Assembly (NCBI GenBank): GCA_003223245.1
Contig: QHYI01000147.1
Location: 1 to 44,772 of the forward strand
From: Acidobacteriota bacterium
GTDB taxonomy: Bacteria > Acidobacteriota > Terriglobia > Acidiferrales > UBA7541
Length of the DNA: 44,772 nt
Direction of reading: 5' to 3'
This document shows positions 1,309-40,814 of this stretch, in pieces. The notes beneath the pieces were generated by a model. That model was given only the letters and a program-made list of their open reading frames with translations. It was not told the DNA's origin and did not search any database. A program made the translations under genes and the position numbers. Every line of letters begins with the position of its first letter. The stretch's first letter is position 1.

Positions 1309-1614
1309 ATGTTGAAGATCTCGATTGTCGAAGGAAGGAAGCAGCGCCGGCTGGTGGTAGAGGGCAAGCTCGTCGCGCCGTGGTCCGATGAGCTGAAAGC
1401 CACCTGCGAAAGGGCTGGATCGGGACTTAACGGCCGCGAACTCGTCGTCGACCTGAAGATCGTCACGACGATCAGCGAAGCAGGTGAAAACGTCCTTGTT
1501 GAGTTGATGAAGCAGGGGGTGAAGGTCCGGTGCTGTGGCGTCTTCACGGAATACGTTTTGAAACAGCTTACCCGCAGGGTGCGCAGGAATGGTAGTCAGG
1601 AGGAGGAGAGATGA
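1309..1614 (+). CDS. STAS-like (anti-sigma antagonist fold) protein
   Basis: A 101-residue protein starting MLKISIVEG. The pattern of short beta strands and helices (RRLVVEGKLVAPW, then ELVVDLKIVTTISEAGENVLVELMKQG split over the middle) matches small STAS-type proteins: the VVDL strand followed by the loop and helix is the region that in SpoIIAA-like proteins carries the phosphorylatable Ser/Thr. Here T-T-I-S occupies that loop, so a serine/threonine is available, but I cannot assign phosphorylation. The start was chosen at 1309 because an AAAGGAAA sequence precedes it; longer frames reach 1039 without support. Its stop overlaps the next start as ATGA, so it is translationally coupled to the efflux genes. 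Role in the operon is unknown; a regulatory partner of the upstream activator is one guess. Confidence 0.7.
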   Translation: MLKISIVEGRKQRRLVVEGKLVAPWSDELKATCERAGSGLNGRELVVDLKIVTTISEAGENVLVELMKQGVKVRCCGVFTEYVLKQLTRRVRRNGSQEEER

Positions 1615-3125: not shown

Positions 3126-3154
3126 TCAAAACCCTCAATAAAAGGAAGAACTAT

Positions 3155-7422: not shown

Positions 7423-7464
7423 TCGAAATGATTCTTTACAGAAATCAAACGAACAAGGAGTCTT

Positions 7465-8238: not shown

Positions 8239-8241
8239 GGC

Positions 8242-8325
8242 ATGAAGGCATTCATCGTCGATCGCTATGGAAGCAAGGACTGCGGGCCGGGCGAAATGCC
8301 GGACCCGGAATTGCGGGAGGATGAG
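8242..8325 (+). pseudogene. 5' remnant of an MDR-type (quinone oxidoreductase-like) dehydrogenase
   Basis: The first 28 codons (MKAFIVDRYG..., GEMPDPELREDE) are the unmistakable beginning of a medium-chain dehydrogenase/quinone oxidoreductase. A ribosome site (TAAGG) and start are intact. After the codons for REDE the similarity ends abruptly and the frame runs into tRNA-like and non-coding DNA, with a stop at 8449-8451. Only about 8 percent of the expected 320-340 residues remain, so it cannot be functional. The break near 8326 marks the left edge of the accretion island. The exact join is uncertain by a few bases. Confidence 0.7.
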
Positions 8326-8355
8326 ACAAGGCAGCGTGCGTTCAGTTTCCGCAAA

Positions 8356-8394
8356 CTGTCACAGCAGAGACGGGTTCGAACCCCGTCGTTTCCA
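8356..8394 (+). repeat. Degenerate tRNA-Asp 3' fragment (att-like copy 1)
   Basis: Begins with the Asp anticodon loop CTGTCAC, then a stem-like AGCAG, and a complete T arm: 5-bp stem ACGGG/CCCGT around TTCGAAC. The acceptor strand is CGTTTCC instead of CGTCCCC, the variable region is 3 nt short and the terminal CCA is lost. It therefore looks like an old or divergent version of the fragments at 8524 and 9577. No 5' half of a tRNA precedes it. Confidence 0.5.
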
Positions 8395-8523
8395 GAAGTT
8401 TCTGCCGTCGTGCGGCAGAGTCCATTTCTTGGTCCATTCATGGGCCAATAATTGTTACTTGGGGTTCCAAAGCGCGGTTTTGCTAGCCATCCGTGCCGCG
8501 TAGTTTCAATCAGTTATCAAATA

Positions 8524-8568
8524 CTGTCACGGCAGAGGTCACGAGTTCGAGTCTCGTCGTCCCCGCCA
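8524..8568 (+). repeat. tRNA-Asp(GTC) 3' fragment (att-like copy 2)
   Basis: 45 nt comprising anticodon loop CTGTCAC, 3' anticodon stem GGCAG, a 5-nt variable region, T arm (stem ACGAG/CTCGT, loop TTCGAGT), acceptor strand CGTCCCC, discriminator G and CCA. The preceding bases do not form the 5' anticodon stem, D arm or acceptor, so this is a fragment, not a gene. The sequence TCAATCAGTTA lies about 20 nt upstream, and the same string lies upstream of copy 3. Same strand and boundaries as copy 3. Confidence 0.85.
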
Positions 8569-8653
8569 TTCTTTCTAAGACTTATTTCTTTAAATAGGGG
8601 CTCACTGCTGACGACCATTCAGGTCGGCCACCGTATTTCCCTCGCCGGATGAT

Positions 8654-8661
8654 GCTATAAT
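8654..8661 (+). promoter_or_regulatory. Extended -10 promoter of the UPF0175 module, near-leaderless
   Basis: TGCTATAAT is a perfect extended -10 element (8653-8661, TATAAT at 8656-8661); no good -35 hexamer is seen. The predicted transcription start falls within about three bases of the antitoxin ATG at 8671, and no ribosome-binding sequence precedes that ATG. The antitoxin mRNA is probably leaderless or nearly so. Confidence 0.55.
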
Positions 8662-8670
8662 TTCTCAATA

Positions 8671-8937
8671 ATGCGACACGTCACGATTGCGATTCCTGAC
8701 GAACTCTCAGCGGCCCTGGCTGCTCCTGGTCAAGATTTGTCCCGTGCTGCCTTCGAGGCCTTGGCCCTAGCCGCGTACCGTGAACGCAAGATTTCGGCTG
8801 CCCAATTGCGTCAGTTGCTTGGTTACGAGAGCCGGATGGAAGTCGATGCCTTTCTGAAGAACCATGGCGTCGAACTGGAATACACACTGGAAGACATCGA
8901 GCGGGATCGCGACACTCACCGGCAACTCGGCTTGTAG
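8671..8937 (+). CDS. UPF0175 family antitoxin
   Basis: 88 residues matching UPF0175 proteins over the whole length: an N-terminal strand (HVTIAIPDEL), the helix FEALALAAYRERKISAAQLRQ, a second helix-turn-helix-like part around LLGYESRMEVDAFLKNHG, and the acidic end YTLEDIERDRDTHRQLG. These small proteins are encoded immediately before DUF3368 PIN-like toxins and act as the antitoxin and autorepressor. Here the stop codon TAG at 8935-8937 is directly followed by the ATG of the toxin at 8938. The antitoxin frame is intact although the toxin is not. Confidence 0.85.
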   Translation: MRHVTIAIPDELSAALAAPGQDLSRAAFEALALAAYRERKISAAQLRQLLGYESRMEVDAFLKNHGVELEYTLEDIERDRDTHRQLGL

Positions 8938-9446
8938 ATGCAAGCGATCGTAGCTGATACAACTCCCCTGAACTATCTCGCGCTCATTCAAGCAGCCGAT
9001 ATTCTTCCAAACCTATATCGAAGGGTTTTGATCCCTCCCGCTGTGAAGGCCGAGCTGGCTCATGCAAACACGCCCGCGATTGTGCGCGCGTGGATTTTGC
9101 AGCCTCCCCAGTGGGTGGAAGTAGTGAGCCTGAAGCTACCCGTCGATTCTGCTCTGGCACACCTCGACGCGGGCGAGCGGGAAGCGATATATCCCTTGCG
9201 TCCGAACTCCCAGCCTTCCTTTTGTTGATGGATGAACGAGACGGCGTGACTATAGCTCGAGATCGTGGACTGAAGGTGGTAGGTACGCTCGCAGCGTTGG
9301 ACCTTGCTGCATCACATGGACTCGTTGACTTGCAAACCATGTTCGACCGGTTGCGCGCGACCACGTTCCGGTCACCGGTTCGCCTCATGGCGAGCATGCT
9401 AGAACAGGATGCCGACCGGAAGAAACGTCAAGAAGGCCGACAATAG
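8938..9446 (+). pseudogene. DUF3368-type PIN-like toxin, frameshifted
   Basis: The first 84 codons encode the start of a DUF3368/PIN-like nuclease (Asp7 in VADTTPLNYL; RRVLIPPAVKAEL; LDAGEREAI). After AI the frame leaves the family, while a second frame continues it exactly (LASELPAFLLLMDERDG, then ARDRGLKVVGTLAALDLA) up to the stop at 9444-9446. The two parts join if two bases are removed from GATATAT at about 9185-9191, which looks like a tandem AT duplication. The C-terminal active-site acidic residues (MDERDG) are therefore out of frame and the toxin is probably inactive, unless the shift is an assembly error. About 169 residues would be restored, the usual family size. Confidence 0.8.
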
Positions 9447-9464
9447 CCGGGCGAGTGGACAAAG

Positions 9465-9495
9465 CACGATCCGGGTACAATAAGGGGACGATAAG
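9465..9495 (+). repeat. Box R1: CRATAAG pair, 11 bp apart
   Basis: First of four copies of a 31-bp box (9465-9495, 10783-10813, 10831-10861, 11860-11889). R1 contains CAATAAG at 9478 and CGATAAG at 9489, start to start 11 bp. It lies 19 nt behind the toxin pseudogene and 81 nt before tRNA fragment copy 3. R1 and R2 agree at about 25 of 31 positions without gaps. One-helical-turn spacing suggests a protein-binding site, for example recombinase arm sites (inference). Confidence 0.7.
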
Positions 9496-9499
9496 AAGT

Positions 9500-9553
9500 G
9501 ACATCCGGTACCTTGTGGTATCAAAAGATGTCCGCCGACACCGTTTGATATCA
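9500..9553. promoter_or_regulatory. Nested inverted repeats upstream of tRNA fragment copy 3
   Basis: GACATC (9500-9505) pairs with GATGTC (9527-9532), and TGGTATCAA (9516-9524) pairs with TTGATATCA (9545-9553) with one mismatch. The block lies between box R1 and the tRNA fragment. No coding function fits. Such symmetry is compatible with recombinase or accessory-protein binding sites. Confidence 0.45.
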
Positions 9554-9576
9554 ATCAGTTACATCACAACGCTGGC

Positions 9577-9621
9577 CTGTCACGGCAGAGGCCGCGGGTT
9601 CGAGTCCCGTCGTCCCCGCCA
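9577..9621 (+). repeat. tRNA-Asp(GTC) 3' fragment (att-like copy 3)
   Basis: 45 nt with the same layout as copy 2: CTGTCAC loop, GGCAG, variable region, T stem GCGGG/CCCGT, acceptor CGTCCCC, G, CCA. The five bases before it (CTGGC) pair with GGCAG except at one position, so identity to a tRNA may extend slightly into the 5' anticodon stem, but no D arm or 5' acceptor strand exists. TCAATCAGTTA occurs 26 nt before the loop, as for copy 2. This is the best-preserved fragment. Confidence 0.88.
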
Positions 9622-9740
9622 TTCCCATTCCAAGTAAAGCGTTACCATTTTCCCTGCAATAACTCATGGGGCAAAGGAGCGCCGCCCGTTGACGTTCGCC
9701 TGGACCCATTGCGTCTTGCGCGCGATCGGGGACCTGACCC

Positions 9741-9770
9741 GTGCTACACTCGCGAAGATATTGTGCTACA
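9741..9770 (+). promoter_or_regulatory. Direct repeat at the promoter of the RHH-like/PIN module
   Basis: GTGCTACA occurs at 9741-9748 and again at 9763-9770, 22 bp apart (two helical turns). The first copy contains an extended -10 like TGCTACACT. It ends 15 nt before the antitoxin ATG. The geometry fits an operator for autoregulation by a ribbon-helix-helix-type antitoxin (inference). Confidence 0.4.
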
Positions 9771-9785
9771 TGGAGGACGTGACCA

Positions 9786-10091
9786 ATGAAGAGGATTACT
9801 TCTTCCACCAGAAGACGACGTGACCGTCTCCGCAACGCCAGATCTGCCAAGTTGCGCGAGGTTATGACCATTGCCGAGCAGGAAGGACTTCTAGGCGGCG
9901 AACGGACCCAGGTCATTCGCGGAAGAATGCCGCGGGCGCTTGTAGCGAGAGCAAAGAATCGCACAGGTATTGCCTCCGATACCGATCTTATCGAGATCGC
10001 GCTGGCCAATATTGCCGTCGCCGACGATTACACCGATTGGCTGCTGTCTCAGCGCGGCAGCATCCCTGGTGAGGTCGATCTTGAGTTCTGA
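9786..10091 (+). CDS. Probable RHH-like antitoxin of a PIN toxin
   Basis: 101 residues with a GGAGG ribosome site (9772-9776) ahead of the ATG. The N-terminal 40 residues are strongly basic (KRITSSTRRRRDRLRNARSAK). The centre has a ribbon-helix-helix-like pattern: a strand TQVIRGRMPRALV followed by ARAKNRTGIASDTDLIEIAL, and the C-terminus ends in the acidic VDLEF. This layout (basic tail, GGER, RHH core, DLEF end) is what I associate with uncharacterised antitoxins next to VapC-type toxins; I cannot name a formal family. Its stop lies inside the toxin gene, whose TTG start at 10081 precedes it by 8 nt. DNA binding and neutralisation are inferred from context. Confidence 0.6.
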   Translation: MKRITSSTRRRRDRLRNARSAKLREVMTIAEQEGLLGGERTQVIRGRMPRALVARAKNRTGIASDTDLIEIALANIAVADDYTDWLLSQRGSIPGEVDLEF

Positions 10092-10644
10092 GTTTCAAGC
10101 CACTCTAAGGCGTCTAAAACCTCACAAACATCGAGACGCCTTCAAACCTCGTCCTGAATCTGACCTCGACTTCCTTGGCAGTGGACAGTATCGCCCCGCG
10201 AAACTGCTGTATGACACTACAGTCTATGTCGACATCCTCCAAGACCGGTTTCCACAAGATGGGGAACGGACGTTGAGGGCGACGGAAGCATGGCATTCGC
10301 CGGTAACAGAGGCGGAGCTCGCTGCGGCTTGCGGCATGCTCGATCCAACTCACTCTGGTACACGACAGATTGTGGAAAAGATTCAAAGAATCATCGAGCA
10401 ACGCTCGACCTTCCGGGTAATCATTCCCGATCCCGAGATCTGGCGGGAAGCGGGAATCCTCTCGGGAGTGCTTGCGCGTCTACAGGGCTATGGGAAAGAC
10501 CAGCGCAGGCGCATGTTGAACGACGCCCTGTTATTCGCAACCGCCCGAAAACATGGATGCGCAGTGCTGACCAGGAATCGCACAGATTTTGATTTCCTGC
10601 AGCAGCTTGATCCTTCGGGAAGGGTTTTGTTTTACAAGTCGTAG
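10081..10644 (+). CDS. PIN-domain (VapC-like) ribonuclease toxin
   Basis: 187 residues from the TTG at 10081, chosen because GAGGT lies 5 nt upstream and the start overlaps the antitoxin stop by 11 nt; a GTG at 10069 is the alternative. An N-terminal extension of about 40 residues precedes the PIN fold. The four acidic positions of the active site are recognisable: Asp45 (LLYDTTVYVDIL), Glu77 or Glu79 (PVTEAEL), Asp148 (MLNDAL) and Asp169 (RTDFDFL). Such toxins cleave tRNA or rRNA at specific sites with Mg2+. The N-terminal extension is unusual for VapC (normally 130-150 residues). The frame is intact, unlike the neighbouring DUF3368 toxin. Confidence 0.75.
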   Translation: MSSEFQATLRRLKPHKHRDAFKPRPESDLDFLGSGQYRPAKLLYDTTVYVDILQDRFPQDGERTLRATEAWHSPVTEAELAAACGMLDPTHSGTRQIVEKIQRIIEQRSTFRVIIPDPEIWREAGILSGVLARLQGYGKDQRRRMLNDALLFATARKHGCAVLTRNRTDFDFLQQLDPSGRVLFYKS

Positions 10645-10782
10645 AGCAACACGACGTCCAGTTGCTCCGCGCCCGGAATTTCCGTTCGCTGGCGGAAATG
10701 CTGCTCCGTAGATCTCGAAATGTTTGAGCTTAATGGCTTCGAGGCCGTCTATTGCCACTATGCAGAAGCAGGCCAGGGTATT

Positions 10783-10813
10783 CAAAATCTCGGGACGATA
10801 AGGGGACGATAAG
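10783..10813 (+). repeat. Box R2: CRATAAG pair, 11 bp apart
   Basis: Second copy of the 31-bp box. CGATAAG at 10796 and again at 10807, start to start 11 bp, with a GGGGA spacer as in R1. It lies 139 nt after the PIN toxin stop and 17 nt before box R3. Confidence 0.7.
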
Positions 10814-10830
10814 TGTACGCGCAACTCGAA

Positions 10831-10897
10831 CAGAATCTGGGCGCAATAAGGGTTCAATAAGAATTCCCGAGGGTTCCTGAGGGCGCCAAGAGTGGCG
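10831..10897 (+). repeat. Box R3 with downstream CGCCA/TGGCG hairpin
   Basis: AATCTGGGCG leads into CAATAAG at 10844 and CAATAAG at 10855 (11 bp). At 10884-10897 a small hairpin CGCCA-AGAG-TGGCG follows. Box R4 has the same AATCTGGG start and the same hairpin (11902-11915), so R3 and R4 are copies of one 55-65-bp element. In R4 a tRNA fragment follows the hairpin; here none is left. Confidence 0.7.
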
Positions 10898-11056
10898 ATC
10901 GGCACCGTGAAATTACAACTATGATAGTTATTCAGAACGCGTGGGCTTCTTGGGTACACCGTGCAAGGTGACTTGCGGTGGACTGGCCGTCGGCGAACTC
11001 ACCGAAAGCACAGCGCCTTGATGCTCTCATCGCTTTGCTGAAGCTCGAGAACAGAC

Positions 11057-31933: not shown

Positions 31934-34018
31934 CTACGCTATCGATTCGGGTTCGGCGTAGTGGATGCTCTCCTCCGCGTCGGTTACCGGCTCGGCGGAG
32001 ATTGCCAAGCGTGGCTGCGGGCTATCGAGAATGACCACTCCTTGATCGTCGGCAAGCAAGCGGAACGTTGGCGATATTTCGTAGAGTTCCTCGAAGGAGC
32101 TTGCGGAAGCTTCTAGTGACGATTCTCCCGGAGCAAGTCCCTCGGCGTCTCTCAAGACAAAGAATTTGGTGCAGAGCCGACGCACGGTTGAGAGGCGATG
32201 GGTGATGATAAGAGCACTCATATCGTCGCCCAGCACTTCTTCAAGACCCTTCTGCACGGCTTTTTCAGTCGTGGCATCGAGCGAAGCGGTGGCTTCGTCA
32301 ACGACCATGAATATCGGCTTACGCATCGCCGCGGCGCCGATCATCAAGCGTTGTTGCTCGCCACCAGAGAGTTCGATTCCATGGCGGCCGACGCGCGTAT
32401 CAAGGCCATCGGTCAGGCGGTCGCCAAAATCAATCTTCAGCTTGCGCATGATGGCCCAGAGCTCCTGATCGGGCACGGTGATCGCTTCATCGGTGAAACG
32501 GTACAGCAGATTGTCGCGGATGGTGCCATCAAAGACCTGGGCCTGTTGCGGCACGTAGGCGATGAGATTGAGCCAGGAAGAGAGCCGCACGTTACGCAGG
32601 TCCTGACTGTCAACCAGAATTGTGCCGGAGGTCGGATCCATATAGCGCATGAGAAGGCGCATGATGGTCGTCTTGCCGGCGCCCGAGGGACCAATCAGAG
32701 CGGCTTTTTCGCCGGGCTCAATGGTGAAGCTGACATTTCGGAGAATCGGCGTGGCCGGCTTAGAGCCTTCGATTCCGCCAGCGGCCACACCCGGAAGATC
32801 GCGTTTTTCCACGGCGTAGGCGTAGCAGACATTGCGCATCTCCACGCGCACACCGTTGTTTCGCCTGAGCTCAATGGCATTGGCCTTGTTGGTGATGTCG
32901 GGCGGAACCGTCAGCGTAAGCATGGCCGTGCGAATCGCCGGCATGTTCCAGTTAATCTGATGTTCGATATGGCCGATATGCCAGATGCTCTCGCTGACTT
33001 TGGTGGCGTACATCAGGAGCGGCACGAAGACGCCGTTGGACCAATCGCCCTGCCAAATCAACCAGGCTCCATAGCCCAGCGTGCCCAAAAGAACGAAACG
33101 GTTGGAGTATCCACGCCAGGTGACCTTGTTGATGAACCACAGCCAGAATTTACGCTCTTCGCCGAGCACTTTTTTGAAGCAGCGATTCTGGTAAGCGATC
33201 TCGGCGTCCTCTTTCGCACAGGTTTTTACGCGCTCGATTTTTTCCCAGCGCTCATGCTCCCAGCGGTTGATACGCCGGAATTCTTTGTCGAACGGCACAC
33301 ATTTCTCGGAAATGTTGCGGTTCAGATAGATAAGCCAGACCAAGTAGCTTGCGAGCAGCAGGGTCATGAAGAAGCCAGCTGACGGCACGCGTAACCACAA
33401 GAGCGTCAGCGCCACCGTAAGCGAGATCATGGAGGAGGAGCCCTCGAACATGAGCATATTTTCGAGTTGCTCGATGCGTCCCTTGCCGCGCTCGATGTTT
33501 GCCGTGTTGAGATAGGAGCTTTCCTGGAGGTGCTGGCCCATGCTCTTCTCAAAGAAGAGTTCATTCATACGGCGCTTGAGTTGCGCGAGATTCTCGCCCT
33601 GTGCGTGTTCCCGTGCGATCATTTGCAGGCGGTCGAAATAGCCGTATATGACCACGAATGCGGCCATGCCCACGAAGCTCATCTTGACAGCATGGGCATC
33701 ATGACGAATAAGGCCGTCAACGAGATATTTGGCCAGCCAGGCGATGCCATTGAGCGCGGTGACCGAGACGGCGAGAGACACAAGCATGCGCCGGGTCCAA
33801 TGGCGGCTTTCCGGAGTGATGAATTCCTGATAGACCCAGCGAGCTACGCGCAAGCTTTCCTTCATCGCATGGAGGTATTCGCGCCAAGTTCGCGAGATTT
33901 TTCGGGTATCTTGCGGATCAAGAATCACAAAAGGGCCCCTAAGTCGCAGACTTCGGCCCGCTGGGAAAGGGAGCACTCGGCCGTCGTCCTCAAAATATGT
34001 GTAATCTAAATGATACAT
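31934..34018 (-). CDS. ABC-type exporter half-transporter (fused membrane and ATPase domains)
   Basis: 694 residues from the ATG at 34018; a TTG at 34042 would add 8 residues. The membrane domain (about 75-385) shows several hydrophobic helices (MLVSLAVSVTALNGIAWLA, FVGMAAFVVIYGYF, GFFMTLLLASYLVWLIYLN, FVLLGTLGYGAWLIW). The ATPase has Walker A GPSGAGKTT, Q-loop YVPQQAQVF, signature LSGGEQQRL, Walker B IFMVVDEATASLD and the switch His in ITHRLSTVRR, all intact. It should work as a homodimeric exporter of lipids, peptides or drugs. The N-terminal 70 residues are soluble and not typical of the family. It stands alone on the minus strand. Confidence 0.93.
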   Translation of the reverse strand: MYHLDYTYFEDDGRVLPFPAGRSLRLRGPFVILDPQDTRKISRTWREYLHAMKESLRVARWVYQEFITPESRHWTRRMLVSLAVSVTALNGIAWLAKYLVDGLIRHDAHAVKMSFVGMAAFVVIYGYFDRLQMIAREHAQGENLAQLKRRMNELFFEKSMGQHLQESSYLNTANIERGKGRIEQLENMLMFEGSSSMISLTVALTLLWLRVPSAGFFMTLLLASYLVWLIYLNRNISEKCVPFDKEFRRINRWEHERWEKIERVKTCAKEDAEIAYQNRCFKKVLGEERKFWLWFINKVTWRGYSNRFVLLGTLGYGAWLIWQGDWSNGVFVPLLMYATKVSESIWHIGHIEHQINWNMPAIRTAMLTLTVPPDITNKANAIELRRNNGVRVEMRNVCYAYAVEKRDLPGVAAGGIEGSKPATPILRNVSFTIEPGEKAALIGPSGAGKTTIMRLLMRYMDPTSGTILVDSQDLRNVRLSSWLNLIAYVPQQAQVFDGTIRDNLLYRFTDEAITVPDQELWAIMRKLKIDFGDRLTDGLDTRVGRHGIELSGGEQQRLMIGAAAMRKPIFMVVDEATASLDATTEKAVQKGLEEVLGDDMSALIITHRLSTVRRLCTKFFVLRDAEGLAPGESSLEASASSFEELYEISPTFRLLADDQGVVILDSPQPRLAISAEPVTDAEESIHYAEPESIA

Positions 34019-34312
34019 GGGGTGCCCCGGCTGACGAGACAATTTTATTCGTGTGCCCTTCGCCGCTGGAGAGAAACTGCTGCGTGACTTAGGCGAAGTC
34101 CTTAGCGCCGGATCTTAGACCCACGCGACTGCCTTTGGCGCGGTGGATACTCCTAGAAGGCGGCTTGATCTTATGCACGCGACCGAATACCGAGGTATGA
34201 CCTCTCCGCTCCGTGTTTCAGGAAGAGAGCTGGCAAAAACCGTTTGACCCCTCCGCGCATCCTCGGCGACAATCCTTGCTCGACCAAAGGGATTTGCGGT
34301 GTTGGTGGAATC

Positions 34313-35464
34313 ATGACGCATGAAGCGGCCGTTTTGCGTGCCCGGGACATCGCTGGTCGCGTGCTAGCACCATCTGCAGGGCAAAACGACAAAGCGGGAC
34401 GATTCTCAATTGAAGCCGTCGATTCGCTTGGTAAGGCTGGACTGCTTGGGTTGATGCTACCAGTAGAGCTAGGCGGTTCTGGCCTAGGACCGCGTACGCT
34501 TGCCCCTGTCACGGCGATACTTGCCGAGGCGGACGCGTCGGTTGCCATGGTCTATCTGATGCACATCCTCGGTGCGGCAACGATCATGAGGGCACGGCCG
34601 ACCGCGGCTCCGACAGTCACCCCCATACTGCAGGAGATCGCCGCTGGCCGGCATCTTTCCACACTCGCTTTCAGCGAAGCCGGGTCGCGCAGCCACTTCT
34701 GGACGCCCATGTCGCGCGCCCATCGAAACGGCAGCGGCGTGCGCATCACCGCTAAGAAGTCGTGGGTCACGAGCGCGGGCCACGCACAGAGCTATGTCGT
34801 TTCTGCGCTTGCCCCTGAAGGGAAAGGTCCGACCGACTCGACTCTCTACGTTCTTCCCGCGGAGACGCGCGGCCTCTCAGTTGCCGGCCCGTGGGACGGT
34901 TTGGGACTGCGGGCCAACGCTTCCGCGCCGATTGCGCTGGACAACTGCGAAGTCCCGTCCCACTTTCAGCTTACCGAGGACGGCGCGGGCTTTCAGGCCA
35001 TGCTAAACGTAGTCCTCCCCTTGTTCAATTTAGGAACGGCAGCGGTGGCGCTCGGACTATGTCGAGCCGCGGTCGCTGGAACTGCGTCGCACCTCAAAAG
35101 CGCGAAATTCGAGCATCTCGGCCAGAGCCTCGGCGAGAGCCTGCCTACATTGCGCGCGCAACTCGCGGCCATGCAGATTGATACCGACGGCCTCTCGGCG
35201 CGCATCGACGATTTGATTGAGCATTTTGAGAAGCCCCGCGAGACAACCATGCTGCGCGTGCTTGAAACAAAAGCGGCGGCAGGCGATATCGCCATCGCCG
35301 TCACCTCGGCAGCAATGCGCATTTGCGGGGGTGCGGCGTTCTCCAAGCATATGAGCATCGAACGCCTGTTCCGCGATGCGCACGCGGGCGCCGTCATGGC
35401 CCCAACGGGCGACGTACTGCGCGAGTTCATCGCCAAGTTGCTTTTGGGAATGCCGCTCTTCTAA
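34313..35464 (+). CDS. Acyl-CoA dehydrogenase-like flavoprotein
   Basis: 383 residues from the ATG at 34313 (GGTGGA upstream; the frame is open from 34244). It has the three-part dehydrogenase layout: N-terminal helices (LGKAGLLGLMLPVELGGSGLG), the beta domain with FAD contacts (LAFSEAGSRSHFWTP, KKSWVTSAGHAQSYVV) and a C-terminal four-helix bundle ending RICGGAAFSKHMSIERLFRDAHAGAVMAPTGDVL in parts. The acyl-CoA dehydrogenase catalytic Glu region is not clear, and the family also contains flavin monooxygenases of the DszC type, so dehydrogenase versus monooxygenase stays open. The next gene, 67 nt downstream, encodes a PhnD-like binding protein; that pairing suggests a dedicated small-molecule pathway. 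Confidence 0.88.
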   Translation: MTHEAAVLRARDIAGRVLAPSAGQNDKAGRFSIEAVDSLGKAGLLGLMLPVELGGSGLGPRTLAPVTAILAEADASVAMVYLMHILGAATIMRARPTAAPTVTPILQEIAAGRHLSTLAFSEAGSRSHFWTPMSRAHRNGSGVRITAKKSWVTSAGHAQSYVVSALAPEGKGPTDSTLYVLPAETRGLSVAGPWDGLGLRANASAPIALDNCEVPSHFQLTEDGAGFQAMLNVVLPLFNLGTAAVALGLCRAAVAGTASHLKSAKFEHLGQSLGESLPTLRAQLAAMQIDTDGLSARIDDLIEHFEKPRETTMLRVLETKAAAGDIAIAVTSAAMRICGGAAFSKHMSIERLFRDAHAGAVMAPTGDVLREFIAKLLLGMPLF

Positions 35465-35531: not shown

Positions 35532-36386
35532 ATGAGCAAAACAATCTGGGTGGGAGCCGTTGCGTACAATCCGAAGGTGGTCACAATCTGGGAGGGCATG
35601 CGGCGCTATTTTCACGAAGAAGCGCATTTGCCCGTGGAGGTCGTACTATTTCAAAGCTACGAGGCGCAGGTAATCGCGCTCCTGGCCCAGCCGGGCGAGA
35701 CCGTGCCGCGTATCGACATTGCCTGGAACACAAACCTCGCCTACCTACAAGCCGAGGAATGGAGCGGCCACCGCTGCCGCGCGGTCGCCATGCGTGATAC
35801 CGATCTCGGTTGGATGACGAAGGTCGTTGCAGTCACGGGAGGTGCCGTCGCCACGCTGTCGGACTTGAAAAATCGAACGCTGGCACTTGGCAGCCGAGAC
35901 AGCGGGCACGCCGCTATTCTGCCGATTCACTTTTTGGAGCAGCAAGGCTTGCGCGAGGGCCGGGACTTCCGCACGCTGCGCTTCGACAGCGATGTAGGCA
36001 AACACGGTGATACCGGGACCAGCGAAGTGGAAGTGGTGCGCGCCGTCCTCGACGGGCGAGCCGACGCCGGCGCCATCGGCAGTCCCTTCTGGAATACCGT
36101 TCGTAGCGAGCGCCTGATCCCCGAAGGCGGACTCTGCGAGATCTGGACTTCGCCCGCCTACCATCATTGCATGTTCACTGCGCGGCCCGATCTTGACTTG
36201 GCGCTCGAGCGGCGGTTCGCCGACGCGCTCTGTGCGATGAATTACGAGAACCCGGTGCACCGTGCCGTCCTCGACGCCGAGGGGCTTCGGCGTTGGCTGC
36301 CGCCTCATGTTGATGGCTACGATGCGTTGCGTCAGGCTGCCGCAGAACAGGGATTCTTCAAGCAGCCATTTGCCAAGTCGGCTTGA
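35532..36386 (+). CDS. PhnD/SsuA-like periplasmic-binding-fold protein without signal peptide
   Basis: 284 residues from the ATG at 35532 (GGGGG upstream). The fold signature is clear: TIWVGAVAYNPKVVTIWEGM, IDIAWNTNLAYLQ, LSDLKNRTLALGSRDSGHAAILPIHFL, and VRAVLDGRADAGAIGSPFW, as in phosphonate-type type 2 binding proteins. There is no signal peptide or lipobox, and no ABC permease or ATPase is adjacent, so it is probably not a transport receptor. Proteins of this fold can act as enzymes or ligand sensors in the cytoplasm. It follows the flavoprotein gene on the same strand and converges with the radical SAM operon. Confidence 0.85.
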   Translation: MSKTIWVGAVAYNPKVVTIWEGMRRYFHEEAHLPVEVVLFQSYEAQVIALLAQPGETVPRIDIAWNTNLAYLQAEEWSGHRCRAVAMRDTDLGWMTKVVAVTGGAVATLSDLKNRTLALGSRDSGHAAILPIHFLEQQGLREGRDFRTLRFDSDVGKHGDTGTSEVEVVRAVLDGRADAGAIGSPFWNTVRSERLIPEGGLCEIWTSPAYHHCMFTARPDLDLALERRFADALCAMNYENPVHRAVLDAEGLRRWLPPHVDGYDALRQAAAEQGFFKQPFAKSA

Positions 36387-36469: not shown

Positions 36470-37498
36470 TCACGCGCAGTTAAAGATTTTTGCCAACTTA
36501 TGCCCGTGTTCGCTTTCGCGTTCGAAGGCGCGGCGGACGGCAGCGAACGACTCGGCCAACGGGAAAATCTCACGTGTCACAAGCAAGTCGGTGTCTTGCG
36601 CCCCCACCGGATGCCAATAAACGCCTTCAGCCGTGATCGTGACTTCGGGCACCAAATCGGCTCTAGTCAGTGCAACCCCTTCTGTGGCTGAGCCGCGCAG
36701 GGCGATCCGGCGGATCACCCGGTCTTCGGGAGCAATGCTTTCATGGTCGAGGAATTGGCGGAACTCCTCAGCCTCTTGATGCGTTGAAACAGTCGCCGCC
36801 AGCCGCACTCGAAACCCTTGCGCACGAGCGCGTTGAATGCCCTCCCTTGTGCGCGCCCAGGTTCCCGGCCCGCGGTGGAGATCGTGCCGTTCCGGCGTAG
36901 CGCTGTCCAAGCTGATCTGCAGGGTAATTCGATCCCGGGGCAAAACCAGCAAACTTTCAATCCGCCGTCCGGTGAATAGCATTCCGTTGGTCAGCACGGT
37001 GGTTGGTGCGGCTGCGGCGCAAGAAACCAGAATCTCGCCTATATCTTCCAGCAGGAACGGTTCGCCTCCGGTTACAAAGATTTCCTGGACGCCGAGTTCC
37101 GCCGCTTCACGAGCAATCCGCTGTACACGCCCGAGCCCCAGTTCTCGTCGCGGCGCGGTCGGTGACGAACGCACACAGCAGTAATCGCAGCGCAAGTTGC
37201 AGTCGAAGTTCGTGTAGAGCCAAAGCCGTCCCCCCACCGGCCGATGGCCTTCGGCAGGCACAGGAACTGTCCCGCAGCGGATCACCCAACGACCGCGTGC
37301 TTTTTCGACCGTGTATTCAACCAGGGCATTGCCCGTGAAACGGCACCACGTTTCCAGTTCCGTGCCGATGCTTTCTTCAGCGCCGACAATCGCCACCAAA
37401 TCGCCCGGACGACTTCGGCGGAGCGCTGCGATCAGCTCCGGCAGCAGCCCTGACGCAAACGTCTTGCGTCCAACATCCAGCTCGATGGTCGCCTTCAT
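36470..37498 (-). CDS. Radical SAM protein fused to an N-terminal TusA-like domain
   Basis: 342 residues from the ATG at 37498, which overlaps the stop of the preceding gene as ATGA; an ATG at 37513 is possible. Residues 1-75 have the TusA/SirA fold pattern: ELDVGRKTFASGLLPELIA, RRSRPGDLVAIVG and ETWCRFTGNALVEY. The cysteine of the usual CPxP motif is missing (KTFASGLLP instead). The radical SAM domain carries the iron-sulfur site Cys100-x3-Cys104-x2-Cys107 (CNLRCDYC), followed by FVTGGEPFLLEDIG and LQISLDSATPERHD. It makes a 5'-deoxyadenosyl radical; the substrate is unknown. The last gene of a tight operon with two glycosyltransferase-like genes. Confidence 0.9.
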   Translation of the reverse strand: MKATIELDVGRKTFASGLLPELIAALRRSRPGDLVAIVGAEESIGTELETWCRFTGNALVEYTVEKARGRWVIRCGTVPVPAEGHRPVGGRLWLYTNFDCNLRCDYCCVRSSPTAPRRELGLGRVQRIAREAAELGVQEIFVTGGEPFLLEDIGEILVSCAAAAPTTVLTNGMLFTGRRIESLLVLPRDRITLQISLDSATPERHDLHRGPGTWARTREGIQRARAQGFRVRLAATVSTHQEAEEFRQFLDHESIAPEDRVIRRIALRGSATEGVALTRADLVPEVTITAEGVYWHPVGAQDTDLLVTREIFPLAESFAAVRRAFERESEHGHKLAKIFNCA

Positions 37499-38841
37499 CG
37501 GAGTACGTTGCATTTTACAATTTTCTGTTCACTTAGGAATGGTTCCATGCTGCGCGCGGCCCAGCCATAGTACGCCAGCCAAAGGTAGACGGGACCGTAT
37601 TCGAGCGACAACATCAGGAGAGAATTCTTGAGTGGCTCCCCTGCCCCGTAAGTGATCGAAGGAGTGTACGCTAGGACGCTAGTCACACTCATGAGCAGCC
37701 AGGCCGCGCTCGGGTAAAAACATAGGAACGGGATCGACCAAGTGAAATACCAGGGATAGGCAGTCGGCGACAGCAGCAGCACTCCGCCCGTGAGAACGAG
37801 ACCCGACCACAGCGGGGACGCCTGCTTCTTTGCCAGGTAGCCAATCGCCACCAACACGATCAAGCCTGCGGCCATCTCTGCTCCGGCTCTCGACCTTGCC
37901 ACGAAATGCAGCAGGTGGAACAGGCTGGCGTTGTTTATCCAATCTCGCGCGTAGTTCCGCGCGCCATCCAATAGGTGCAAGCCGGCATCCAGGAACGGAA
38001 TATAGAATGCGAAAACCAAGAGTGCAAAGATGCCGATGGAGGCGAGGCGCACGCGTTTTAGGAAGGCAAGCAAAAGCAGCATCGGGAAAAACTTGGATAG
38101 AAACGACAACCCAAGTGTTCCCATCGAGAGCGCCTGGCGATTCGTCACGAGAAAGAAGAGCGCCGCCAAGAGCGTGACGATCGCAAGCGAATCAAAATGA
38201 CCACTCATCGCAAACGAGATAAGTACCGCGGGGTTCCACGCGTAAGTAAGCACACGGTGCAAAGGCTGCTTCACCGCAGCCAGCAGGAGCATCAACACGC
38301 CGGCACTTGCCATATCGAAGATCGTGGATGTGCGCTTGTATCCGGGAACTGTCTCGACCAGCCTGTAGGCAAGTTCGCTCAGAGGCGGATAAATCGTCGG
38401 AGTGTCTTCCCCCGGTGGTTCAGGATGCTCCGGATTTAACAGCCACTCGAGTCCTTCCTGGTTGGGATATACGACGTACGGATTCAGGTGCGCTCGCTGG
38501 GCCCGGCCATCCCATTGGTAGCGATATACGTCGTCGGAAAGTGTCGAGGGGGCCGACAGCAGCACCACACGAAATAAGACCGCACTCCCCAGAATAAGGA
38601 CGAGAGCGGTTGCTCCCAGCCGATACCGCTCGACGCAAAACACGCCTACGACGTAGAAGATGCCGGCGAGCAGCACGAGTCCGATGAATTCCGGCATACA
38701 GGCGTCCAAGTCCTGCTGCCGAGCGACCCACTTGAAGATGACTGTTAATGCTCCCGCCAGGAAAGCGAGCCCCGCCGTGACAATACCACGCGGCCAAAGA
38801 GTCTCAAGGCGTTGTACATAATCCCGCCAGAACTCCTTCAT
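37495..38841 (-). CDS. Polytopic GT-C type mannosyltransferase-like membrane protein
   Basis: 448 residues with about ten hydrophobic helices (TAGLAFLAGALTVIFKWVA, FIGLVLLAGIFYVVGVFCV, ALVLILGSAVLFRVVLLSA and others). An extracytoplasmic loop carries the GT-C type motif LSDDVYRYQWDGRAQRAHLN, in which the Asp-Asp pair binds the metal or lipid phosphate, as in polyprenol-phosphate-mannose-dependent transferases (GT87-like). NPYVVYP and the repeated AWNPAVLISFAMSGHFDS agree. It should transfer a sugar from a polyprenol carrier to an acceptor outside the membrane. Its stop overlaps the radical SAM start and it begins 9 nt behind the DUF2064 gene. Confidence 0.85.
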   Translation of the reverse strand: MKEFWRDYVQRLETLWPRGIVTAGLAFLAGALTVIFKWVARQQDLDACMPEFIGLVLLAGIFYVVGVFCVERYRLGATALVLILGSAVLFRVVLLSAPSTLSDDVYRYQWDGRAQRAHLNPYVVYPNQEGLEWLLNPEHPEPPGEDTPTIYPPLSELAYRLVETVPGYKRTSTIFDMASAGVLMLLLAAVKQPLHRVLTYAWNPAVLISFAMSGHFDSLAIVTLLAALFFLVTNRQALSMGTLGLSFLSKFFPMLLLLAFLKRVRLASIGIFALLVFAFYIPFLDAGLHLLDGARNYARDWINNASLFHLLHFVARSRAGAEMAAGLIVLVAIGYLAKKQASPLWSGLVLTGGVLLLSPTAYPWYFTWSIPFLCFYPSAAWLLMSVTSVLAYTPSITYGAGEPLKNSLLMLSLEYGPVYLWLAYYGWAARSMEPFLSEQKIVKCNVLR

Positions 38842-38850
38842 AGAAATCCT

Positions 38851-39528
38851 TTACTCATGCCCCGCCCTCGCCTGCTTCGAAAGCCACTCAGCTGTTCTTG
38901 GTGCTTTCCTCGGCATGCGCCGCAGTTCGTCGGCGAGTTGCCTAAGATCTGCCGCGATATCGATGTCGTAGAAGGGATCGGTCAGTTGCACCGAAATCCC
39001 CAACTCACGGGCACGGGTTAACAGCGCTTCAAGCGCATTTCTTGTTCCCATCCCATCATTGCTGAACAAACCTGGATGGGACGCCTTCGCACCGACGAGA
39101 TAATAGCCGCCGTCGTGAGTGGGGCCTACCACCAAGTCGCGAGTTTCGAGTAGGTCGAATGCCGTTTCTAAGACTGCGGCTGGCAGGTGCGGACTGTCGC
39201 TATTGAAGGCCATGACGCGCTGGTGGCCAGAAGCTGCAAAATGCTTGAACACGCAGGCAAGGCCGGCGGCGAGGCCTTGACCTGTCTGCGGCACAATGGG
39301 CACGGTTTTAGCCACCACGCGCGACAGGTCTTCAGCGTCGGACGCGGGGCACATTATGGCAATTTCCACATGATCGAGCGTTTGTGCCAGAGCGATGGTG
39401 TCGTTCAGAAGACATCGGTACAGCTCGGTGATCGCTTCGAGAGGAAGGCTCTCAGCCAAGCGGGTCTTGACCGAGCCGAGCCTGGGAGCTTTGGCCATGA
39501 TAACTAGAGTACGATTCATCGATGTCAT
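38851..39528 (-). CDS. DUF2064/TIGR04282-like glycosyltransferase family protein
   Basis: 225 residues (an ATG at 39519, three codons in, is the likelier start: MNRTLVIMAKAPRLGSVKTRL). The sequence follows the nucleotidyl/GT-A-like family that TIGRFAMs calls transferase 1 of rSAM/selenodomain loci: VKTRLAESLPLEA, QTGQGLAAGLACVFKHFAA, VMAFNSDSPHLPAAVLETAF and LVVGPTHDGGYYLVG. NSDSP and DGGYYL mark the sugar-nucleotide and metal site. Known members occur in arsenosugar and rSAM clusters, and the donor is generally not established. It lies between a GT2 gene and a GT-C gene on one transcript. Confidence 0.87.
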   Translation of the reverse strand: MTSMNRTLVIMAKAPRLGSVKTRLAESLPLEAITELYRCLLNDTIALAQTLDHVEIAIMCPASDAEDLSRVVAKTVPIVPQTGQGLAAGLACVFKHFAASGHQRVMAFNSDSPHLPAAVLETAFDLLETRDLVVGPTHDGGYYLVGAKASHPGLFSNDGMGTRNALEALLTRARELGISVQLTDPFYDIDIAADLRQLADELRRMPRKAPRTAEWLSKQARAGHE

Positions 39529-39581
39529 GCAAACGCGTCACCGTTTCGTTCGAGGTTCCCTAAATATTGCCAACCGGGATT

Positions 39582-40289
39582 TCAAACCGGCCTTGCCATG
39601 GTGGTTTTTCGGCGGCGGAAATAGTAGCTTGCGATGCGGCTGAGAATGAACCACGCCGCCCCAAAAGTGCCCTTGAAGGTGCCGCTGATCTTCGATTTCC
39701 CAAGGCGTGGATGATAGCTTACCGGGACCTCGACAATGCGGAAACCCGAGATAACTCCCTTGAGGATCAATTCCACTGCCCAACCATACGTGGTCTCCTG
39801 CAATTCCACCGCGCGAAGAACATCTGCACGTGCAGCACGGAACGGACCGAGGTCGCTAATCTTGAGTCCGTAGAGCTTCGTGATCAAGGTGGCAGCGAGC
39901 CAATTGCCGAACAGCGCGTGCCAAGGAAGCGCTCCGGGCGTGCGCGGACCTGCAAGACGCGAACCGATGGTAATGTCTGCCCGCCCCTCAGCAATGGGAG
40001 CGAGGAGAAGCGGAAGCTCAGCAGGTCGATCGCTGTAGTCGCCATCCAGAAAAACGACAACATCGGGCGCGTTAGTGCAAGCGAGCCCGGTGAGGCACGC
40101 CTGGCCGTATCCACGACGCACTTCTGAAACGACACGGGCGCCCATGCGGGCAGCAATCTCCGGAGTCCCGTCCGATGAGAGGCTGTCGACGACAATGACT
40201 TCGTTTACCAGCTCCGCGGGAATATCAGCAAGGACATGACCGATTGCCAGTGCCTCGTTGCGCGTAGGAATGATGACTGAGACCCGCAC
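39582..40289 (-). CDS. Family 2 glycosyltransferase (dolichol-phosphate-mannose-synthase-like)
   Basis: 235 residues. GT-A fold features: VSVIIPTRNEALAIGHVLADI, VIVVDSLSSDGTPEIA, VVFLDGDYSDRPAELPLL with the DGDxSD metal site, and TIGSRLAGPRTPGALP. The C-terminal part has LKISDLGPFRAARADVL and a basic end (YYFRRRKTTMARPV) without long hydrophobic helices. It probably makes polyprenol-phosphate sugar, which would be the donor for the GT-C enzyme encoded downstream (inference from context). It corresponds in position to the second transferase of rSAM/selenodomain loci. Starts 15 nt behind the DoxX gene. Confidence 0.9.
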   Translation of the reverse strand: MRVSVIIPTRNEALAIGHVLADIPAELVNEVIVVDSLSSDGTPEIAARMGARVVSEVRRGYGQACLTGLACTNAPDVVVFLDGDYSDRPAELPLLLAPIAEGRADITIGSRLAGPRTPGALPWHALFGNWLAATLITKLYGLKISDLGPFRAARADVLRAVELQETTYGWAVELILKGVISGFRIVEVPVSYHPRLGKSKISGTFKGTFGAAWFILSRIASYYFRRRKTTMARPV

Positions 40290-40304
40290 GCGACCTCCGC
40301 TCGG

Positions 40305-40814
40305 TTACCACCAAAATGCGGATGGACGCTTACGCGCCAAGAAGGAATCAACACCCCACGTGCGGCCCGCTCCTCCTATAACCAGCGCGAGCGAAGCTAG
40401 GACCGGAACGAGCAGTTCCCATATCCATGCCGTGCCCCATTCCGAGATCCATAGGCTTGAAAGAAAGGCGAAAGCCACAAGTGCGACCGGACGCGTAAAA
40501 AGGCCGAGCACCAACAACACGCCAAGCGAGATTTCTGTGAATCCCTGAACCGGTGCGGCCATCGCCGCGTGAGCTGCCGCGAAGGCCATAACGCTTTTCC
40601 ACAGAGCAGGGGCACTACCGTTCTCAATATAGTCATTGATGAGGCCAGCGTAGCCCGATGGCTTGTATAGGCCCTTCCCCAGATTCTCAAAGAAGACCCA
40701 CACGAACATTGCACCAATTGTGAGCCGCACCAAGGCGAGCCCAAATCGAGCATGGGGCTGGTGGTCTGCGTGGGACGCGTTGTCTTGCAACTCGCTGGCG
40801 GTTGTCATCATCAT
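40305..40814 (-). CDS. DoxX family membrane protein
   Basis: 169 residues, four hydrophobic helices (LALVRLTIGAMFVWVFFENL, AFAAAHAAMAAPVQ plus following, LLVLGLFTRPVALVAFAFL, WELLVPVLASLALVIGGAG), the usual DoxX layout. DoxX proteins include the small subunit of thiosulfate:quinone oxidoreductase and redox-partner proteins of sulfur metabolism; most are uncharacterised. Three ATG codons in a row (40814, 40811, 40808) follow GGAAGG; any could start. It is the first gene of the operon that ends with the TusA-radical SAM protein, and a sulfur link between the two is possible but not shown. Confidence 0.85.
   Translation of the reverse strand: MMMTTASELQDNASHADHQPHARFGLALVRLTIGAMFVWVFFENLGKGLYKPSGYAGLINDYIENGSAPALWKSVMAFAAAHAAMAAPVQGFTEISLGVLLVLGLFTRPVALVAFAFLSSLWISEWGTAWIWELLVPVLASLALVIGGAGRTWGVDSFLARKRPSAFWW

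What the first reader, a model, noticed from the sequence alone, without database searches (positions are those of the whole stretch)
36470..40814. Five-gene operon: DoxX, two GT-A transferases, GT-C enzyme and TusA-radical SAM fusion
Gaps are 15, 53 and 9 nt and one 4-nt overlap, ended by a clear terminator. Two of the genes correspond to the transferases of rSAM/selenodomain (arsenosugar-type) loci, but the radical SAM enzyme is different: it carries a TusA-like domain without the sulfur-carrying cysteine. A GT2 making a polyprenol sugar, a GT-C using it and a radical enzyme point to an undescribed modified glycolipid or glycan.
Basis: partly seen in the sequence, partly recalled or inferred. 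Interest (0 to 1): 0.65.

Follow-up and report, generated by a model that had tools for sequence, protein, structure and literature searches.

The report
Radical-SAM locus with swappable partner enzymes
A bacterium, probably a soil acidobacterium, carries an uncharacterised set of enzymes that also lies in mycobacteria; one small docking-like domain of the set is fused to either of two unrelated radical-making enzymes, and here the set adjoins genes that probably build sugars onto membrane lipids.

Summary
The five-gene operon is real, with the gaps described. The radical SAM protein belongs to a named, uncharacterised family, NCBIfam NF049973 (Rv1681/MoeX); its partners resemble FadE16 (Rv1679) and a cytosolic substrate-binding-protein-like protein, SBP (Rv1680). 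Of 80 radical SAM loci, 73 have SBP nearby, 68 FadE16, 50 DoxX, but 44/41/34 DUF2064/GT2/GT-C. FadE16 lacks the usual catalytic glutamate. The radical SAM protein's N-domain is TusA-like without the carrier cysteine. In 11 of the 15 sampled genomes of this phylum with SBP but no such radical SAM gene, the same kind of domain is fused to an AurF/R2lox-like di-iron oxidase: an O2-dependent and an O2-independent catalyst behind one domain and the same partners. The glycosyl cassette is separable (seven congeners carry it without this gene) yet has joined this set repeatedly, in Miltoncostaea as one gene run near selABD. I read it as a conserved three-component radical pathway, coupled in some lineages to polyprenyl-sugar glycosylation. 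Substrate unknown; sulfur/selenium chemistry is only a lead.

The parts
36470..37498 (-). Radical SAM protein P0001 (342 aa), Rv1681 family; residues 1-76 TusA-like domain without the CPxP cysteine, 85-342 radical SAM core, C-terminus F-x-C-A
   Evidence: NF049973 480 bits, cut-off 380; invariant C100/C104/C107, C108, WHP 295-297, F339-C341-A342 in 30 of 30 aligned rows; model pLDDT 88.6
35532..36386 (+).
   Evidence: NF049985 309 bits (cut-off 400) and PF12974 111 bits; no hydrophobic segment; model pLDDT 93, closest PhnD/PtxB/ArrX/AioX; near rSAM in 73 of 80 loci
34313..35464 (+). FadE16-type flavoprotein (Rv1679 type), acyl-CoA dehydrogenase fold without the catalytic Glu
   Evidence: NF049984 428 bits (cut-off 600); MAP in place of YEG; near rSAM in 68 of 80 loci; same 8 of 101 relatives as the SBP-like gene
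40305..40814 (-). DoxX/DoxD-family membrane protein
   Evidence: PF04173 32.9 and PF07681 29 bits, over cut-offs; a DoxX-family gene in 50 of 80 loci
39582..40289 (-). GT2, polyprenyl-phosphate-hexose-synthase-like (AglJ-like), GTG start
   Evidence: PF00535 71.5 bits; TIGR04182 127.6 bits, under cut-off 325; TIGR04283 40.7, under 182
38851..39528 (-). DUF2064/TIGR04282 CofC-like transferase; the only one over cut-off found in this genome
   Evidence: TIGR04282 153 bits, cut-off 134; one of two matches over cut-off in the genome, the other 22 bits
37495..38841 (-). GT-C-like membrane transferase (GT87-like, weak)
   Evidence: PF09594 19 bits, under cut-off 25; 8 hydrophobic segments; a Miltoncostaea GT-C::GT2 fusion passes GT87, 32.4 bits
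36441..36463 (-). Hairpin plus TTTT after the rSAM stop, in the 83-nt gap between the convergent units; probable terminator
   Evidence: 56-nt stretch folds at -24 kcal/mol, z -1.8; position; not listed by the consensus scan

Best explanation
The locus is the radical SAM edition of a conserved three-component enzyme system, with a glycosylation cassette attached. SHOWN by sequence: FadE16 and the SBP-like protein travel as a pair, and the third gene beside them is most often a Cys-less TusA-like domain fused either to a radical SAM core (window, Bradyrhizobium, Verrucomicrobiota, Myxococcota, a Thermoplasmata archaeon; in Actinomycetota with a shortened N-domain) or to an AurF/R2lox-like di-iron oxidase (11 of 17 sampled genomes of this phylum with the SBP gene). 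The glycosyl cassette (DoxX, GT2, DUF2064, GT-C) is separable but repeatedly linked. INFERRED: the TusA-like domain is a docking or substrate-presenting domain, not a sulfur carrier; the radical enzyme abstracts H from a small molecule held by, or handed over by, the cytosolic SBP-fold protein (invariant GKHGD and HC motifs); the flavoprotein, having lost both known base positions, does a second non-dehydrogenase step such as oxygenation, elimination or desulfination; DoxX and thioredoxin-type neighbours supply or drain electrons. In lineages with the cassette the product is placed on, or made from, a polyprenyl-linked sugar outside the membrane. Product class (organosulfur/organoselenium or phosphonate-like) is a guess.
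For: Partner counts over 80 loci, within the fetched stretch of at most 8 kb a side: SBP 73, FadE16 68, DoxX 50, DUF2064 44, GT2 41, GT-C 34; over the 54 loci of 14 kb or more: 51, 49, 42, 32, 31, 25. FadE16 and SBP in the identical 8 of 101 relatives, none over the curated cut-offs, at the E limits I set. Third gene next to SBP in 17 genomes: TusA-di-iron 11, TusA-rSAM 2 (one is the window), MetE-like 2, none identified 2. The two TusA-like domains are homologous: profile-profile probability 98.1%, E 6.8e-14; 14 slices outside the domain gave at most 0.4%. Of 5 fused relatives scanned, 2 pass Pfam TusA (34.3 and 29.0 bits against 28.6) and 1 AurF (34.2 against 29.6); the di-iron ligand pattern ENE, DEARH, GEG, DE-R is invariant in 11 of 11 rows, the last His in 10. 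SBP motifs GKHGD and HC are invariant in 17 of 17 rows across the three variants; the FadE16 MAP motif and the Phe at the other base place in 10 of 10. Mycobacterium simulans genes pass all three Rv1679/1680/1681 cut-offs, in that order. Cassette link: window proteins match Bradyrhizobium at about 65-77% for the trio but about 32-36, 40-44 and 29-35% for DUF2064, GT2 and GT-C, and the Bradyrhizobium DUF2064 genes form their own clade, so the cassette was probably joined more than once; in Miltoncostaea all lie in one run of genes.
Against: Nothing here shows a reaction. The cassette is missing near most actinobacterial trios (DUF2064 plus GT2 in 8 of 34 loci) and is present without the trio in congeners, so coupling may be lineage-specific. 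Loci are not independent: 22 of 80 are alphaproteobacterial, mostly Bradyrhizobium, and some genomes give two or three loci. The rSAM form occurs in only 2 of 101 relatives and 1 of 396 phylum genomes. The three Chloroflexota matches and the Miltoncostaea rSAM protein lack the TusA-like domain, the latter also the FxCA tail. Two genomes have a MetE-like gene instead, which does not fit a purely radical third component. 3 of 5 scanned fusions miss the Pfam TusA cut-off and 4 of 5 the AurF cut-off. The selenoneine-synthase association holds within relatives but not elsewhere.
Confidence: 0.42

Rival explanations
1. The five genes are one pathway for a radical-modified glycolipid or glycan: GT2 charges polyprenyl phosphate, GT-C transfers, the radical SAM enzyme modifies the sugar or lipid.
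For: Tight spacing; GT-C::GT2 fusion and DUF2064 in one Miltoncostaea run with rSAM, FadE16, SBP and DoxX; joining in Acidobacteriota, Bradyrhizobium, Streptomyces and others with distinct cassette clades.
Against: 34 of 80 rSAM loci have GT-C and 41 of 80 GT2, against 73 with SBP and 68 with FadE16; mycobacterial trios L081, L084, L087 have no cassette in the fetched stretch; congeners have the cassette without this rSAM.
Confidence: 0.26
2. The trio serves sulfur or selenium small-molecule metabolism (ergothioneine/selenoneine type thiols): the SBP-like protein binds a seleno- or thio-phosphate-like or organosulfur ligand; TusA-like, MetE-like and OsmC-like parts act on thiols.
For: In G071 the SBP gene lies in an OsmC-SBP-MetE-SenA-SenB-like run, SenA 523 bits, cut-off 420; SenA over cut-off in 6 of 8 SBP genomes against 14 of 101 in all, permutation within families p 0.0026; the Miltoncostaea run lies near divergent selD-selA-selB; SBP's nearest outside family is a putative selenate binder, under cut-off; the nearest ACAD families include SfnB and a desulfinase, under cut-off; thioredoxin- and CcdA-type neighbours in 8 and 7 of 80 loci and on a plasmid.
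Against: 0 of 50 genomes with rSAM loci (10 of them Acidobacteriota) have SenA over cut-off, though 40 of 50 have an EgtB/SenA-superfamily match; in the phylum sample 2 of 10 SBP genomes against 24 of 396, p 0.12, or 3 against 25 counting a truncated match, p 0.02; the SBP oxyanion-site Ser/Thr are largely replaced.
Confidence: 0.2
3. MoeX as annotated: the radical SAM enzyme serves molybdenum-cofactor synthesis.
For: Weak MoaA similarity, 64.8 bits; filed so in the tuberculosis literature (passages).
Against: Cut-off 284; the genome has its own MoaA at 364.6 bits elsewhere; after residue 160 the only cysteine is C341, so no second-cluster motif (motif recalled); partners unrelated to molybdopterin.
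Confidence: 0.03
4. Two unrelated modules lie together by genomic accident and horizontal transfer.
For: Patchy trio; cassette present in congeners without the trio.
Against: Recurs with distinct cassettes in several phyla, while a relative's genome has none or one DUF2064 gene of this kind, two in one case.
Confidence: 0.12

Closest known systems
NCBIfam NF049973/NF049985/NF049984 (Rv1681, Rv1680, Rv1679 families)
   Same: Window rSAM passes the cut-off; the SBP-like and FadE16 genes match the other two families best
   Different: Window SBP and FadE16 score under the curated cut-offs; they are convergent to rSAM, not co-directional as in L084; a glycosyl cassette is attached; I found no function for any
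rSAM/selenodomain (ArsS, arsenosugar-type) loci, TIGR04167/04282/04283
   Same: TIGR04282 transferase beside a radical SAM gene
   Different: rSAM 36.5 bits against 300; GT2 40.7 against 182; no ArsS over cut-off in the genome
TusA (PF01206)
   Same: Profile similarity and predicted strand/helix order
   Different: No CPxP cysteine; fused to catalytic domains
AurF / R2-like ligand-binding oxidase
   Same: Ferritin-like di-metal ligand pattern in the alternative fusion
   Different: Carries the TusA-like N-domain and sits with FadE16/SBP; mostly under the curated cut-offs; not in the window
PhnD/PtxB/ArrX/AioX binding proteins
   Same: Fold
   Different: No export signal seen, no importer genes noticed beside it in the window, different conserved motifs
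Selenoneine locus senAB
   Same: One SBP family member lies inside such a run
   Different: Not at the window locus; the window genome's senA and a senB-like gene are on another contig

Membership tests
NF049973 Rv1681 radical SAM family | curated score cut-off 380 bits | tested here: met
   480 bits
NF049973 Rv1681 radical SAM family | CxxxCxxC radical SAM motif | tested here: met
   C100, C104, C107 invariant in 30 of 30
MoaA / molybdopterin (MoeX name) | TIGR02666 cut-off 284 bits | tested here: not met
   64.8 bits; true MoaA elsewhere, 364.6 bits
ArsS rSAM/selenodomain | TIGR04167 cut-off 300 bits | tested here: not met
   36.5 bits
TIGR04282 transferase | cut-off 134 bits | tested here: met
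   153 bits
TIGR04283 transferase | cut-off 182 bits | tested here: not met
   40.7 bits
TusA sulfur carrier | Pfam gathering cut-off 28.6 | tested here: not met
   window domain 19.6 bits; of 5 fused relatives scanned L160 34.3 and L165 29.0 pass, 3 do not
TusA sulfur carrier | active-site cysteine of CPxP (recalled) | tested here: not met
   no Cys at that place in the rows of A5 that reach it, but for a nearby Cys in L110 (MDCGSG), nor in A6
Acyl-CoA dehydrogenase | fold / Pfam domains | tested here: met
   ACAD N, M and C domains over cut-off
Acyl-CoA dehydrogenase | catalytic Glu (IYEGT position; alternative helix position recalled) | tested here: not met
   Ala in 19 of 19 rows, Phe at the other place
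NF049984 Rv1679 FadE16 family | cut-off 600 bits | tested here: not met
   428 bits; L084 homologue 640.7
NF049985 Rv1680 SBP-like family | cut-off 400 bits | tested here: not met
   309 bits; L084 homologue 477.5
ABC-importer binding protein | export signal | tested here: not met
   no hydrophobic N-terminal segment by Kyte-Doolittle
AurF/R2lox-like oxidase (alternative fusion, not in window) | di-metal ligand pattern | tested here: met
   11 of 11 rows, last His 10 of 11
AurF/R2lox-like oxidase (alternative fusion, not in window) | curated cut-offs (AurF 29.6, R2lox 194 bits) | tested here: inconclusive
   AurF passed by 1 of 5 (L196), R2lox by 0 of 3
GT87 GT-C | Pfam cut-off 25 bits | tested here: not met
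   19 bits
All enzymes above | activity | not testable with these tools
   needs biochemistry

The most novel reading that the evidence does not exclude
A Cys-less TusA-like domain acts as an interchangeable dock that brings either an O2-independent (radical SAM) or an O2-dependent (di-iron) radical catalyst to a cytosolic binding-protein-fold partner and a non-dehydrogenase FadE, making an undescribed, probably sulfur- or selenium-related metabolite in soil bacteria, archaea and mycobacteria, which several lineages then glycosylate at the membrane.
Probability: 0.25. Interest if true: 0.82.

Novelty: new variant of a known kind. Interest (0 to 1): 0.62.

Why it matters
It ties three unassigned mycobacterial-type genes (filed in papers under fatty-acid oxidation, phosphonate transport and molybdopterin synthesis) into one conserved system and says all three labels are probably wrong. 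The rSAM/di-iron swap behind one domain makes the reaction type testable: both enzymes should act on the same substrate, without and with oxygen. It also points to harmless hosts (Bradyrhizobium, Streptomyces) where both the core and the glycosyl cassette can be deleted.

Tried and rejected
Arsenosugar reading: no ArsS over cut-off in the genome, rejected. MoaA/molybdopterin: rejected. The plain selenoneine reading: strong in relatives, weak in the phylum sample and absent in 50 genomes with rSAM loci (50 of the 80 loci given), so kept as a lead only. I noticed afterwards that SBP matches above about 250 bits mostly go with SenA and those below do not; this split was post hoc and is not used. 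A purine-nucleoside-phosphorylase-family neighbour (9 of 80 loci) was considered as an adenosylation clue, too sparse. The structure comparison gave the radical SAM core; almost no listed chain covered the N-domain. Searching plasmids for the TusA-di-iron fusion found nothing. The SBP-like search of plasmids also gave a protein annotated as a selenate-transporter part in another bacterium. Papers: search listings only, except passages read in PMC8562490, PMC11250799, PMC5499769 and PMC6440112; seven searches, of which 42 and 105 found no paper.

Count caveats: L031's GT2 row is a doubtful long branch; L034 and G018 are one genome; L076/L097 and L088/L093/L103 come from one genome each; the 34 'Actinomycetota' loci include one Candidatus Dormiibacterota (L099). 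DoxX counts used profiles iterated on the same loci. Gene calls in loci are simple open-frame choices, not a trained gene finder. In one search two query rows (a FadE and an OsmC row) were cut out of frame and held stops; the FadE genes of the eight relatives rest, the others.

Full report
Observation. They are DoxX/DoxD, a GT2, a DUF2064/TIGR04282 transferase, a GT-C-like membrane protein and a radical SAM protein. The terminator is a hairpin with a short T run that a consensus scan does not list. Of the two GT-A genes only the DUF2064 one belongs to the rSAM/selenodomain set (153 bits, cut-off 134); the GT2 is nearer to AglJ-type polyprenyl-sugar synthases, under cut-off.

What was missed. 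Two + strand genes converge on the operon: 34313-35464, an acyl-CoA-dehydrogenase-like protein, and 35532-36386, a substrate-binding-protein-like protein. The radical SAM protein passes NCBIfam NF049973, the Rv1681 family (480 bits, cut-off 380). The two convergent genes best match the Rv1679 and Rv1680 families, though under the curated cut-offs. In Mycobacterium simulans (L084) all three pass and lie in order behind a thioredoxin-like gene and a DoxX-family gene. A Mycolicibacterium vanbaalenii plasmid shows the trio in the same order with annotation.

Conservation. Among 80 loci with a relative of the radical SAM protein, the SBP-like gene is near in 73, FadE16 in 68, DoxX in 50, DUF2064 in 44, GT2 in 41, GT-C in 34; among the 54 loci of at least 14 kb the numbers are 51, 49, 42, 32, 31, 25. 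DUF2064 plus GT2 occur together in 10 of 12 Acidobacteriota loci, 19 of 22 alphaproteobacterial, 2 of 3 Myxococcota, 1 of 1 Thermoplasmata, 8 of 34 loci labelled Actinomycetota (one of them, L099, is in fact Candidatus Dormiibacterota), 1 of 3 Chloroflexota, 0 of 4 Verrucomicrobiota and 0 of 1 Gemmatimonadota. In 101 relatives, full-length radical SAM matches occur in 2; in 396 genomes of the phylum in 1. The rSAM form is patchy.

The swap. FadE16 and the SBP-like gene occur in exactly the same 8 of 101 relatives, all under the curated cut-offs but at E below 1e-60; 2 of the 8 have the radical SAM gene. In 5 of the other 6 the next gene encodes a TusA-like domain fused to a ferritin-like domain. 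A wider sample gave 10 SBP genomes of 396. Over the 17 genomes together, the third gene is the TusA-ferritin fusion in 11, TusA-rSAM in 2 (the window and G018), a MetE-like gene in 2 (G071, G221) and not identified in 2: G283, where efflux-like genes follow, and G435, where the SBP frame holds a stop and only a 44-bit TusA-fusion fragment follows. FadE16 is beside SBP in 15, one of these across two contig ends. The fusion weakly matches R2-like oxidase and AurF models (AurF cut-off passed by 1 of 5) and keeps the di-iron ligand pattern in 11 of 11 rows, one row having Tyr for the last His. Its N-domain and that of the radical SAM protein are homologous: hhalign probability 98.1%, E 6.8e-14. 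Of 17 slices of the alignments compared as controls, three gave more than 0.4%, and these were the domain itself (A4, A1) and its edge (A1); the other 14 gave 0.4% or less. The cysteine of TusA is missing in both (the CPxP motif is recalled). Radical SAM and di-iron enzymes are known elsewhere as oxygen-independent and oxygen-dependent counterparts (recalled), so I infer a shared radical step.

Anatomy of the parts. In 30 of 30 rows the radical SAM protein keeps C100/C104/C107, C108, W295-H296-P297 and the C-terminus F-x-C-A; the first three are the cluster motif. The core resembles SkfB, SuiB, BlsE, viperin and MoaA. Besides these the window protein has only C52, C75 and C160, so it looks like a SPASM-type protein that lost its auxiliary clusters and kept one C-terminal cysteine (inference). 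FadE16 has Ala where acyl-CoA dehydrogenases have the base Glu, in 19 of 19 rows, and Phe at the alternative base place (recalled place); both hold in 10 of 10 proteins from all variants. The SBP-like protein has no export signal that I could see, folds like PhnD, PtxB, ArrX and AioX, and keeps GKHGD and HC in 17 of 17 proteins across variants, while the Ser/Thr oxyanion stretch of PhnD is mostly replaced.

The glycosyl cassette. Seven congeners without the trio carry DoxX-GT2-DUF2064-GT-C in the same order, and an eighth (L135) the first three. In 7 of these 8 a secreted-looking protein of about 246 residues follows (not called in L138, where the contig ends); a different radical SAM gene lies beside the cassette in 7 of 8 (all but L137, partly cut in L142 and L145), and a methyltransferase-like frame beside that in 4 (family scans only for members from L138, L140 and L141). 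Window proteins match Bradyrhizobium far better for the trio (about 65-77%) than for DUF2064, GT2 and GT-C (about 32-36, 40-44 and 29-35%), and the Bradyrhizobium DUF2064 rows form a separate clade (100/100), while the window groups with congeners (long branches advise care). So the cassette belongs to the lineage and was probably joined to the trio more than once. In Miltoncostaea oceani one run of genes on one strand reads DoxX, CMD, rSAM, GT-C::GT2 fusion, DUF2064::NUDIX fusion, FadE16, SBP, DUF2515, SPASM rSAM, with selD-selA-selB divergent about 1 kb upstream. The SPASM protein there is about 48% identical to the second radical SAM protein of the Bradyrhizobium loci. That is the best evidence that core and cassette work together.

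Selenium and sulfur lead. In G071 the SBP gene lies between OsmC-like and MetE-like genes, followed by SenA and a SenB-like gene; SenA scores 523 bits, cut-off 420. SenA passes in 14 of 101 relatives and in 6 of the 8 SBP genomes; a permutation within families gives p 0.0026, or 0.00045 if a truncated match is counted. But in the 396-genome sample it is 2 of 10 against 24 of 396 (p 0.12; 0.02 with a truncated match counted), and 0 of 50 genomes with rSAM loci pass, while 40 of 50 have an EgtB/SenA-superfamily match. I keep it as a lead.

Literature. In the searched library the mycobacterial genes turn up in tuberculosis biomarker papers (listing only), as a GWAS locus filed under molybdenum cofactor (passages, PMC6440112), as a putative phosphonate transporter part (passage, PMC8562490) and as a starvation-raised protein filed under beta-oxidation (passages, PMC11250799). 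The neighbouring cmr, rv1676 and dsbF genes are described as redox-linked (passages, PMC5499769). In seven searches I found no functional study of the trio and no paper on a TusA fusion to either catalyst; I read none of the listed papers whole.

Verdict. The family is named but uncharacterised as far as I could find; the arrangement here is a new combination, and the swap of catalysts behind a shared domain is the surprising part. Architecture is well supported; chemistry is inference.

Noticed in passing
L135, L138, L140, L141, L144 and, cut, L142, L145 (congeners): The DoxX-GT2-DUF2064 cassette lies beside a different radical SAM gene (L140's, 354 aa, best model mycofactocin MftC at 65.8 bits, cut-off 265); methyltransferase-like frames flank four of them and phosphorylase-family frames three cassettes (L137, L140, L144; only L140's scanned).
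   Followed up: partly
L031-L033, L035-L040, L072: A secreted-looking protein of about 245 aa lies near the rSAM gene in 10 of 80 loci; L037's has no Pfam or NCBIfam match at the limits used. No such gene lies between GT-C and rSAM in the window.
   Followed up: partly
19 Bradyrhizobium/alphaproteobacterial loci between L041 and L071: A second radical SAM/SPASM gene (L054's nearest the tungsten-cofactor maturase model, under cut-off) and, in 15 loci, a methyltransferase.
   Followed up: partly
L202 (M. vanbaalenii plasmid) 1-10945: Deiodinase-like, glutaredoxin, CcdA, disulfide oxidoreductase and a second radical SAM plus methyltransferase flank the trio.
   Followed up: no
L198 (G221) 143-2896: What looks by eye like a sulfonate/nitrate-type ABC transporter lies about 3 kb from OsmC-FadE16-SBP-MetE-like genes.
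   Followed up: no
L170 (G000 contig C205) 1328-3621: The window's genome has a SenA gene (507 bits) followed by a SenB-like frame on another contig.
   Followed up: partly
window 31934-34042: An MsbA-like ABC exporter next to FadE16, with only weak matches in 5 of the 80 related loci.
   Followed up: partly
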